64,000 bases of DNA from Perkinsus marinus ATCC 50983. Lineage: Eukaryota > Perkinsozoa > Perkinsida > Perkinsidae. Shown here piece after piece: positions 46,139 through 48,784 of this stretch. Location of the stretch: contig NW_003217086.1 in NCBI RefSeq assembly GCF_000006405.1, positions 9,061-73,060 on the forward strand, read 5' to 3'. Below the pieces are notes generated by a model, which did no database searches, was not told where the DNA came from, and saw only the letters and a list, made by a program, of their open reading frames with translations. A program made the position numbers and the translations under genes. Position 1 is the first letter of the stretch; the number at the start of each line of letters is the position of its first letter.

Positions 46139-46165
46139 TGGACACTGTTTGAACTCGAGAGATTT

Positions 46166-46440
46166 CTCTGGGTGGGGCGGCTATGCCACCACCGCAGGAT
46201 ATGCCTTAGCGCAATCAATTTCCCCGGGTGGGGCGGCTATGCCACCACACCAGGATATGCCTTACGGCAATCAGTTCCTCAGGCGGGGCGGCTATGCCAT
46301 TACTTCCAGATATAACTCAGTACAATCAATTCCTCAGGCGGGGCGGCTATGCCATTACTTCCAGATATGACTTAGTACGATCAATTCCTCGGGCGGGGCG
46401 GCTATGCCACTACTCCAAGATATACCCTAGTACAGAATAA
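46166..46440. repeat. 55-56-bp minisatellite array, about 5 copies (plus-strand GGGGCGGCTATGCC)
   Basis: The core GGGGCGGCTATGCC starts at 46174, 46230, 46285, 46340 and 46395. The unit is the reverse complement of the 34956-35275 array: GGCATAGCCGCCCC against GGCATAACCGCCCC, with matching flanks such as GATCAATT. It lies just upstream of the first visible exon of the polycystin-like gene. Confidence 0.93.
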
Positions 46441-46672: not shown

Positions 46673-46677
46673 TCGCG
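46673..46677. repeat. Target-site duplication, left copy
   Basis: TCGCG directly before the LTR, matched by TCGCG at 48780-48784 directly after the other LTR. Confidence 0.9.
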
Positions 46678-46860
46678 TGTTGAGGTTATGAGCAACACAA
46701 CAGAACTTGAGCCAAGATGGCTACGTTAATAACAGACCCCTCCTCTAGAACTTCTGCTACAAGTGCCTCTATAAGATTATGATAATAGCTAACGGCAAGA
46801 CTAGACTCTTGCACTCTTGCTATTCCTCTATAAAGATCAAGTAGTAAAGATTTCTCTACA
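46678..46860 (-). repeat. 3' LTR (183 bp)
   Basis: Plus-strand copy begins TGTTGAGG and ends CTCTACA; identical by eye to 48597-48779. It contains a near-match to the spliced leader at 46706-46727. Confidence 0.95.
46706..46727 (-). other. Spliced-leader-like sequence in 3' LTR
   Basis: On the minus strand the last 20 bases read CGTAGCCATCTTGGCTCAAG, preceded by AA. Against the alveolate leader beginning ACCG this is 21 of 22 matches, with C to A at position 2. The following bases are TTCTG, not a GT donor. Confidence 0.85.
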
Positions 46861-46882
46861 TCTCGGTCCCCCAAGGTGGCGG

Positions 46883-47707
46883 CTATAGAGCAGACACCTT
46901 CCTCGAAGACTCATCAGAAAGCTGCGTAGGACTTTTCAACTTTAGAACTGATATTCCTTTTGGATCGACAGCAATGGTCGCAGGAATATGCGGGGGACCT
47001 CCTATCTTCAAAATACCATCAGAAGTGAAATACATAGGTACAACAGTTCTATGGTCATCAAGAAGCTTATATTCATGGACAAGAAGAAGATCATCATTAG
47101 TCCATGAGACCTTACTACCAACTCTCACCGTACCATCTTCATCTTTCCAGGCTAGGAAAGTGTGACCAGAAGACACAATTCGCACTCGCCTCTTAAGTGG
47201 AAGGTCTTCCGCGATAGGTGGAGATGACAGTCTCTCCCTTTTATGACCTCTGGGGATAGATGAAGGCAGATGGTCTTCATCTGGCTCACCAAACTGATGT
47301 TCATCTTCCGAGCTGAAATAGGGCTTCAAATGATCCTTGTGGAAGACCTGTCGAGTACCGTCAGGAAGTTGAACCTCATAACATTGCCCGCCAATTGGAC
47401 CCATAATGACACCCCTAATCCACTGGGAATCCAATTTATGTTGGGGCTTACGATATACGCAGACAGATTCGCCTCGAACATAATGTTCTCGTACCTCTGG
47501 GCCTTTACTCTTCTCTCTTGATCTAGTCCATGCATCCGACCAAACGCTTAATAGCTGTCGACGATGGCGATCCAACCGAGATATCTCAGAGAGTATGGTC
47601 GAGACTCTAGCCTTGTTAGGGAAGGAAATAAGTGATGTCACATCCTCATGAGTTAGCGGCTCCTTCAGAACTTGACTACGAATCGAAACGTCAAAAGGGA
47701 GCCTCAA
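46883..47707 (-). pseudogene. Integrase C-terminal fragment of the LTR element
   Basis: A 274-codon frame opening inside the end of the integrase core (in-frame upstream residues AYKLGISPHEILFGFKLRLP are typical of the core's last segment), followed by a chromo/GPY-F-like C-terminal domain (WIRGVIMGPIGGQCYEVQLP, then VFHKDHLKPYF). A basic linker (LPLKRRVRI) and a further roughly 90-residue tail end in SSRKVSAL 22 bases from the LTR. The catalytic DDE residues are absent. The frame is offset by one base from gag. Confidence 0.75.
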
Positions 47708-48594
47708 CTTGAATCCGAAGAGAATCTCATGAGGGGAAATACCGAGCTTATAAGCGTCGACTCCTTATCAATACGAACAAAGTAATCTTCTACTCGCTCA
47801 TCTTCTCTCTGCACTAATCGCTCCCAACGTAATAAGGCCTCACCTTTATTGAAGGTTCCCAAATATCTTTCATCAAGGTACTTCCAGATCTCAGTTATAA
47901 TCTCAGCGCTTGATGCCCCCTCTCGCAACTTCTCTCTAATCATAACATTAATCTCATCTTTGAGAGGTCCCGAGAAGTTACGAAGAATATAATAAAGCTC
48001 AGCATCTCCATGCAAATGATAAATAACAACAGCATCTGAGACTTTCCGCTTCAATATTTCATAGGGTAGTTCAGGAGTTGGTCGAGACCATGGAGCTCCC
48101 AACACGAGATCCAAACTATTCCATTTAACTTTATAATCATTCCTAGAACCACCGGCCTTAACACCACCACCAGAGCCATCACCACTTCCCATCTCACCAG
48201 TTTTGCCAACCAAGAATAATTCCAAAGCATTATGTAAATCCTCGTGGCGATTAATGGGCCACTCGATACCTTGCGATCGAATAGACACTATCACTTGCTT
48301 CGCTAGATACTTCGCAAGAGAATTAATCCATTCCCCACTCATGCCCTCAACTTGAGCGGCATCAATAACGGCCCCATAGATTACCCTAGCTTTCTCCTCA
48401 ACATCTACAATTTCCGTTTTAGAAGCCCAACGCTGCAATTTCGCCCTCATAATTGATACCTCCTTATTGAAGGCATCCCTCTTTTCAACCTCTAGATAAA
48501 GACGTTGCATCTCCATCCCCAGGTCCACACCTACAATAGGTGCTATTACGGCACTTGCGAATACAGCGTCGGCAGATCCTGCATCGGGTACCAT
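47704..48594 (-). CDS. Retrotransposon gag-like protein, truncated by fusion
   Basis: A 296-codon frame starting ATG 48594, four bases after the 5' LTR. The region LPYEILKRKVSDAVVIYHLH ... LLRWERLVQREDERVEDYFV matches the pattern of retrotransposon gag domains (Trp-Glu-x-Leu-x-Gln, Glu-x-Val-x-Asp-Tyr). An N-terminal helical, Lys/Glu-rich part precedes it. The last 20 or so residues come from out-of-frame integrase sequence after the deletion junction (about 47752-47768). No CCHC zinc knuckle is left. Confidence 0.75.
   Translation of the reverse strand: MVPDAGSADAVFASAVIAPIVGVDLGMEMQRLYLEVEKRDAFNKEVSIMRAKLQRWASKTEIVDVEEKARVIYGAVIDAAQVEGMSGEWINSLAKYLAKQVIVSIRSQGIEWPINRHEDLHNALELFLVGKTGEMGSGDGSGGGVKAGGSRNDYKVKWNSLDLVLGAPWSRPTPELPYEILKRKVSDAVVIYHLHGDAELYYILRNFSGPLKDEINVMIREKLREGASSAEIITEIWKYLDERYLGTFNKGEALLRWERLVQREDERVEDYFVRIDKESTLISSVFPLMRFSSDSS
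48576..48593 (-). promoter_or_regulatory. Primer-binding-site candidate
   Basis: TGGTACCCGATGCAGGAT begins three bases after the 5' LTR with the TGG needed to pair with a tRNA 3' CCA end. It would pair with a tRNA whose T stem ends CCTGC and acceptor ends ATCGGGT. It overlaps the gag start codon. Confidence 0.6.
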
Positions 48595-48596
48595 TT

Positions 48597-48779
48597 TGTT
48601 GAGGTTATGAGCAACACAACAGAACTTGAGCCAAGATGGCTACGTTAATAACAGACCCCTCCTCTAGAACTTCTGCTACAAGTGCCTCTATAAGATTATG
48701 ATAATAGCTAACGGCAAGACTAGACTCTTGCACTCTTGCTATTCCTCTATAAAGATCAAGTAGTAAAGATTTCTCTACA
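48597..48779 (-). repeat. 5' LTR (183 bp)
   Basis: Identical by eye to 46678-46860. It ends against the TCGCG duplication. Confidence 0.95.
48625..48646 (-). other. Spliced-leader-like sequence in 5' LTR
   Basis: Same 21-of-22 match as at 46706-46727, in the sense orientation relative to gag and about 30 bases before the gag ATG. Confidence 0.85.
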
Positions 48780-48784
48780 TCGCG
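48780..48784. repeat. Target-site duplication, right copy
   Basis: TCGCG, equal to 46673-46677. Confidence 0.9.

What the first reader, a model, noticed from the sequence alone, without database searches (positions are those of the whole stretch)
48597..48779. Spliced-leader sequence built into the LTR of a retrotransposon
Both LTRs carry, in the sense orientation relative to gag, a sequence matching 21 of 22 bases of the dinoflagellate/Perkinsus trans-spliced leader. It lacks the GT donor that follows the leader in SL RNA genes, so it looks like the 5' end of a mature trans-spliced mRNA and not an SL gene. About 119 bases of LTR precede it and about 42 follow before the LTR ends. One reading: the element's RNA is trans-spliced, so the leader became the start of R and is copied into each LTR during reverse transcription. 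Another: the LTR captured a leader and uses it as a start or processing signal. Dinoflagellates are known for leader relics in retroposed genes, but I know of no LTR that carries one.
Basis: partly seen in the sequence, partly recalled or inferred. Interest (0 to 1): 0.86.

Follow-up and report, generated by a model that had tools for sequence, protein, structure and literature searches.

The report
Host RNA leader inside retrotransposon LTRs
In a Perkinsus genome (a relative of dinoflagellates), many unrelated LTR retrotransposons carry the cell's own spliced-leader sequence inside their long terminal repeats, which suggests that their RNA is trans-spliced by the host and that the borrowed leader is copied back into DNA when they replicate.

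Summary
The window holds a 2.1-kb internally deleted Ty3/gypsy-type element (minus strand, 46678-48779) with two identical 183-bp LTRs and a 5-bp target duplication. Each LTR carries 21 of 22 bases of the Perkinsus spliced leader (SL). It is one of many. In the same assembly, 134 SL sites that are not SL RNA genes were examined. They fall into 26 flank families; 8 families (96 sites) contain LTR pairs, 18 pairs in all. LTR leaders match both SL RNA types of the cell; two other one-base-deleted forms searched were absent. Partial extra copies end at the leader's 3' end, and three of the junctions, plus one junction shift, lie at an AG, as expected if element RNA was trans-spliced and then reverse-transcribed. 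Best reading: the leader is the start of R, donated by SL RNA and copied into both LTRs. No RNA was examined, so trans-splicing is inferred; other junctions do not fit AG. The feature is a minority trait: 19 of 150 integrase hits have a same-strand leader nearby (3 opposite-strand). It may explain the >100 intronless leaders reported in P. marinus in 2011. I found no report of it in the open-licence papers searched.

The parts
48780..48784 (.). target-site duplication CGCGA (minus-strand reading), 5' side
48597..48779 (-). 5' LTR, 183 bp, TGTAGAG...CTCAACA
   Evidence: 183 of 183 identical to 3' LTR
48647..48779 (-). part of the 5' LTR before the leader, read as U3
   Evidence: position; U3 role inferred
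48625..48646 (-). spliced-leader sequence in the 5' LTR, read as start of R
   Evidence: 21/22 to the L-type leader; role inferred
48576..48593 (-). primer-binding-site-like TGGTACCCGATGCAGGAT, overlapping the start codon of the gag-side ORF
   Evidence: same sequence beside the C343 and C227 elements; matching tRNA gene not found by exact pattern
47704..48594 (-). gag-side ORF, 296 aa
   Evidence: 39% to the N-terminal part of a 1890-aa frame on C343; no Pfam match
46883..47707 (-). ORF of 274 aa matching the C-terminal part of pol; the region between (RT, most of integrase) is missing
   Evidence: weak Integrase_p58_C and SH3_Tf2-1 below cut-off
46861..46876 (-). G-rich stretch just before the 3' LTR, polypurine-tract-like
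46678..46860 (-). 3' LTR, 183 bp
46706..46727 (-). spliced-leader sequence in the 3' LTR
46673..46677 (.). target-site duplication CGCGA, 3' side

Best explanation
The window element is a young, internally deleted member of a group of Perkinsus Ty3/gypsy-type LTR retrotransposons whose R region begins with the host's spliced leader. Proposed cycle: (1) transcription starts upstream in U3; (2) the host spliceosome joins the leader of SL RNA to the element's pre-RNA, as a rule at the AG that ends the resident leader copy, so that the leader is replaced and does not grow; (3) reverse transcription from the PBS runs through U5 into the new leader; (4) the leader encoded near the end of the RNA by the 3' LTR gives the homology for first-strand transfer; (5) the leader is thereby fixed at the U3-R border of both new LTRs. 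Once in an LTR it perpetuates itself, rewritten from SL RNA. Shown: the anatomy, its recurrence in many LTR families, both leader types, partial copies that end at the leader's 3' end. Inferred: steps 1-5 as a process, and any function.
For: 134 non-SL-RNA leader sites in 26 flank families, 96 of them in 8 families with at least one LTR pair, 18 pairs. In 14 elements measured, the leader is at LTR position 83-322 and 21-138 nt before the LTR end; 9 of 14 have exact 4-5-bp duplications, 13 of 14 a TGG within 5 nt after the 5' LTR, which sets the sense. LTR leaders come in the cell's L and S forms (28 exact S-pattern matches, SL RNA genes included), while forms lacking one G (0 exact; all 40 near hits are also S-pattern hits) or one C (0 at <=2 mismatches) are not found. 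Four families hold both forms. Extra partial copies end at the leader's 3' end; L023 starts after GTAG, L130 after the AG at the U3-leader border, L131 where its sister L160 has TTAG; in C281 the leader sits just after TGCGAG, kept by C39, both LTRs agreeing in each. PMC3229502 (passages) describes AG-edged truncated relics as the mark of trans-splicing followed by reverse transcription.
Against: No RNA data. GCTCAAG or CTCAAG-like additions (L124, L130, L137, L153) have no AG at their left edge; L119/L120 and L067 junction shifts do not fit AG. In C176 only one LTR has the stack though the U3 parts differ at 1 of 248 bases, so tandem slippage is possible there. Most integrase hits (131 of 150) have no same-strand leader nearby, and L037 with the same PBS has none, so the element type does not need a leader. 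The first entry of a leader into an LTR is unexplained.
Confidence: 0.6

Rival explanations
1. Encoded mimic: transcription starts at the leader itself, so the element RNA bears a leader-like 5' end without trans-splicing; the sequence is kept by selection as a start, capping or translation signal.
For: The leader is shared by LTR families with unrelated flanks, as a selected motif would be; its position inside the LTR fits a start site; PMC4330643 (passages) notes a special cap on the dinoflagellate leader, which a mimic could exploit.
Against: Partial copies ending at the leader's 3' end, an AG-bounded junction shift in both LTRs of C39 and C281, and both SL RNA forms inside one family are not expected; the first three bases vary and often differ from SL RNA.
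Confidence: 0.2
2. Passive relic: leaders entered LTRs in a few rare past events (cDNA capture or template switching) and spread with the elements; they now do nothing and are not renewed.
For: A minority of integrase hits have a leader nearby (19 of 150); decayed copies exist (L003, L004, L056); leader-free relatives exist.
Against: 26 flank families, 34 exact L-type and 28 exact S-type matches (these counts include SL RNA genes), in LTR pairs up to 100% identical: many independent events or upkeep are needed.
Confidence: 0.15
3. Chance match, or a misread SL RNA gene.
For: None found here.
Against: 112 sites against 1 for the reversed control; 0 in window shuffles; the SL RNA genes examined differ: GTA after the leader and a poly-T tract 80-81 nt from the start.
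Confidence: 0.02

Closest known systems
Cer1, Ty3/gypsy element of C. elegans (PMC3315495, passages)
   Same: An LTR retrotransposon with an RNA that is trans-spliced to a host leader (SL1).
   Different: Only the spliced 2.4-kb mRNA was found with SL1 (and also without it); the 8-kb genomic RNA was not trans-spliced. The passages seen mention no leader in the LTR.
Leader relics in retroposed dinoflagellate genes (PMC3229502 passages; PMC12014239 passages; the original 2008 paper only cited there)
   Same: Leader plus truncated leader copies in DNA, read as trans-splicing followed by reverse transcription; truncation after nucleotide 7 at an AG, as in L023.
   Different: There: single genes. 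Here: the leader sits at an inner position of both LTRs of autonomous-type retroelements, where it would be rewritten at every cycle.
Intronless leader sequences of P. marinus (PMC3101222, sections 14, 15, 16, 22 read)
   Same: Over 100 genomic leaders without the SL intron, most starting with T and in tandem repeats, not functional SL RNA genes; here 61 of 110 sites start with T and many are repeated 5-6.5 kb apart.
   Different: Those sections give no LTR explanation; that those sequences are LTRs was not tested here.
Ordinary Ty3/gypsy LTR retrotransposons
   Same: TG...CA LTRs, 4-5-bp duplications, TGG primer site, RVT_1 and H2C2 integrase in relatives.
   Different: R normally derives from the element alone (recalled); here its proposed start has the sequence of a host RNA.

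Membership tests
Ty3/gypsy LTR retrotransposon | two near-identical LTRs with TG...CA and a 4-6-bp target duplication | tested here: met
   183/183 identical, CGCGA
Ty3/gypsy LTR retrotransposon | PBS after the 5' LTR and purine tract before the 3' LTR | tested here: met
   TGGTACCCGATGCAGGAT and CCTTGGGGGACCGAGA
Ty3/gypsy LTR retrotransposon | PBS complementary to a tRNA of the host | tested here: inconclusive
   exact pattern search found none; mismatches, introns and tRNA fragments not tried
Ty3/gypsy LTR retrotransposon | gag and pol with RT before integrase | tested here: not met
   the window copy lacks RT and most of integrase; its relative on C343 has gag, an RVT_1 match below the curated cut-off, and H2C2 integrase in one 1890-aa frame. 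Filed as a deletion derivative, not as a complete member
SL RNA gene | leader followed by a GT donor, intron and poly-T tract | tested here: not met
   TTCTG follows in the window; 6 real SL RNA genes found elsewhere
trans-spliced retroelement with leader in R | leader at the same inner position of both LTRs, in sense | tested here: met
trans-spliced retroelement with leader in R | element RNA starts with the leader of SL RNA | not testable with these tools
   no transcript data at hand
leader relic by trans-splicing and reverse transcription | truncated second leader starting just after an AG | tested here: inconclusive
   fits in L023, L130 and L131, not in the GCTCAAG/CTCAAG-like cases; the window copy itself is single

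The most novel reading that the evidence does not exclude
A retroelement life cycle in which the 5' end of R is donated in trans by the host spliceosome in every generation: the host leader serves as cap donor and as a common homology handle for strand transfer in otherwise unrelated LTR families, and the first three bases of the LTR copy record how reverse transcriptase meets the capped end of the leader.
Probability: 0.45. Interest if true: 0.92.

Novelty: new variant of a known kind. Interest (0 to 1): 0.82.

Why it matters
If true, trans-splicing is not only tolerated by a retrotransposon but built into its replication, with part of the LTR rewritten from a host RNA. It would give the orphan leaders reported in P. 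marinus in 2011 a plain explanation, provide a DNA record of trans-splice acceptor choice and of the leader's capped 5' end, and make it testable how a host's leader shapes LTR evolution. It also bears on which reverse transcription produces leader relics in dinoflagellate genes.

Tried and rejected
Rejected: chance; SL RNA gene; CpG decay as the cause of the position-3 changes: among the 100 listed L-type sites C3 is T in 23, A in 11, G in 4, while G4 is A in none (1 of the 110 sites, an S-type one, has A at position 4).

Led nowhere: copia-type RT (RVT_2) gave nothing, but its control genomes gave nothing either, so absence is not shown. Primer tRNA by exact pattern: none. Leader pattern in IMG/VR: one contig, with no LTR-like direct repeat. 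Lower divergence of the leader than of its flanks is not used as evidence, because sites with more than 3 mismatches were never collected.

Limits: 100 of 112 L-type sites are listed. For the 57 S-type hits 40 stretches were fetched and one site per stretch used. Position counts leave out one LTR of each of 18 pairs and 6 near-duplicates (134 to 110). RVT_1 and integrase searches scored 150 of 206 and 150 of 218 candidates. 11 of the 26 families are single sites of undetermined nature; some may be retroposed genes. The C34 leader pair (SL RNA genes) and the C281:23135-24287 tandem were not counted as LTR pairs. Pairs C286 (9.6 kb apart; stretch cut at its end) and C176 (3' LTR rearranged after the leader) are less certain.

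Full report
The element. On the minus strand at 46678-48779 lies a 2.1-kb element with two identical 183-bp LTRs (TGTAGAG...CTCAACA) flanked by CGCGA. After the 5' LTR come a primer-site-like TGGTACCCGATGCAGGAT and an ORF of 296 aa whose start codon overlaps it; a second ORF of 274 aa and a G-rich stretch precede the 3' LTR. The first ORF matches the N-terminal part of long frames on C343 (39%) and C227 (37%). The second matches the C-terminal parts of frames on C227, C343, C70 and C137. On C343 an RVT_1 match (below its curated cut-off) and an H2C2 integrase match lie between these parts. The window element is therefore an internally deleted gag-pol derivative. The three database relatives of the gag-side ORF come from Perkinsus olseni (70 and 67% identity) and P. 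marinus (67%), so the host is taken to be a Perkinsus; the species was not established.

The leader in the window. AACGTAGCCATCTTGGCTCAAG lies at 48646-48625 and 46727-46706, at LTR position 134 with 28 nt after it. The P. marinus leaders are ACCGTAGCCATCTTGGCTCAAG (22 nt, L) and ACCGTAGCCATCTGGCTCAAG (21 nt, S) (PMC9399869, passages). No donor follows.

The genome. In the 54.5-Mb assembly the L pattern has 112 sites at <=3 mismatches (34 exact; reversed control 1) and the S pattern 57 at <=2 (28 exact; control 0). I examined 140 sites (100 L, 40 S). Six are SL RNA genes, with GTA after the leader; in the five measured the poly-T tract is 80-81 nt from the start, close to the 80-83 nt SL RNA of P. 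marinus (PMC3101222 section 15). The other 134 fall into 26 flank families, 15 with at least two sites; 8 families contain LTR pairs and hold 96 of the 134 sites. There are 18 pairs, 14 of them 5-6.5 kb apart. In 14 elements measured, LTRs are 167-416 bp, the leader is at LTR position 83-322 and 21-138 nt before the LTR end, 9 of 14 have exact 4-5-bp duplications (not C132, C221, C271, C281, C39), and 13 of 14 have TGG within 5 nt after the 5' LTR (not C251), which makes the leader sense in those 13. In 8 pairs an integrase match on the same strand lies inside.

How widespread. Of 150 Integrase_H2C2 hits (218 candidates), 19 have a same-strand leader within the chosen distance and 3 an opposite-strand one; with frames of at least 1000 aa it is 9 of 94 against 0, with shorter frames 10 of 56 against 3. 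Of 17 gag relatives 6 have a leader in the 1.5 kb upstream; in 11 the best local match was reached by shuffled sequence (2 of 60 shuffles or more). One of the 11, L037, shares the window element's PBS. The feature is recurrent but a minority trait.

The window's own LTR family. L003 lacks 13 nt of the leader with flanks kept, and L004 carries a decayed leader at the same place. L056, found through L004, is more decayed. Clustering joins the window LTR with LTRs on C199, C333 and C343.

Why trans-splicing is favoured. First, leaders match both SL RNA forms. S differs from L by one missing T; the form lacking one G has 0 exact matches (its 40 near hits are also hits of the S pattern) and the form lacking one C has 0 at <=2 mismatches. 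Four families hold both forms, such as L151 (S) beside L107 and L022 (L). Second, extra partial copies in L023, L124, L130, L131 and L137 end at the leader's 3' end, and L153 has a similar ACTCGAG there. In L023 the copy starts after GTAG; in L130 after the AG formed at the U3-leader border; in L131 at the place where its sister L160 has TTAG. In C281 the leader sits just after TGCGAG, which C39 and C96 keep, and both LTRs of C39 and of C281 agree. PMC3229502 (passages) describes AG-edged relics in dinoflagellate genes as the mark of trans-splicing followed by reverse transcription. Third, variation is concentrated at the leader's 5' end. In 38 nearest-neighbour comparisons of L-type sites position 3 differs in 17; the mean is 1.2 for positions 4-22, 2.5 upstream, 1.9 downstream. 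In 9 S-type comparisons position 3 never differs. Over 110 sites position 1 is T 61, A 33, G 12, C 4, while the SL RNA genes examined start ACC. A blocked, misread or untemplated end of first-strand DNA would explain this; that is inference, and the S-type result does not support it.

Results against. Additions of GCTCAAG or CTCAAG (L124, L130, L137) and ACTCGAG (L153) have no AG at their left edge. The junction differences of L119/L120 and L067 do not fit AG. In C176 the stack is in one LTR only, although the U3 parts differ at 1 of 248 bases, so slippage in a tandem repeat is possible there. How a leader first entered an LTR is open. No transcript was examined.

Literature. PMC3101222 (abstract, sections 14, 15, 16 and 22) reports over 100 P. 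[quoted passage not shown] Its discussion mentions reverse-transcribed mRNAs or recombination for leader exons next to genes, not LTRs. Cer1 (PMC3315495, passages) has a trans-spliced subgenomic mRNA but a genomic RNA that is not trans-spliced. Searches (listings) and passages of PMC3229502, PMC3942190, PMC12014239, PMC9399869, PMC4558846, PMC9911081, PMC7789003, PMC11067881, PMC4330643, PMC6050394 and PMC8045281 showed no LTR carrying a leader. The library holds open-licence papers only, and I read none of these whole, so an earlier report cannot be excluded.

Verdict. The best mechanism (0.6) is host trans-splicing of element RNA, with the leader as start of R and renewed by reverse transcription. 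An encoded mimic (0.2) and a passive relic (0.15) remain. Because the window LTR encodes AAC where SL RNA has ACC, the choice comes down to a read-level test.

Noticed in passing
L166 (IMGVR_UViG_3300045993_001077), 1936-2913: A contig classed as viral, AT-rich, holds two exact dinoflagellate leaders on the minus strand (2746-2766, 2893-2913); one ends 45 nt before the ATG of a 254-aa ORF. It looks like a dinoflagellate mRNA with its leader captured as cDNA in a large-virus genome; that reading is an impression, not tested.
   Followed up: partly
L-type LTR leaders, position 3 (sites): Position 3 of the leader is a hot spot of change (17 of 38 nearest-neighbour pairs) in L-type families but not in 9 S-type pairs. 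Unexplained.
   Followed up: partly
48576-48594: The primer-binding-site-like stretch overlaps the start codon of the gag-side ORF (ATGGTACCC...), also in the relatives L036 and L037.
   Followed up: no
G000 C281:23135-24287: Three leader copies in a tandem of about 566 bp, an array derived from leader-bearing LTR sequence.
   Followed up: no
G000 C228:8611-13194 and C247:32367-36950: Leader-bearing LTR sequences facing each other in inverted orientation about 4.5 kb apart, the same arrangement on two contigs.
   Followed up: no
window 46164-46434: Tandem repeat of about 55 bp just downstream of the element.
   Followed up: no
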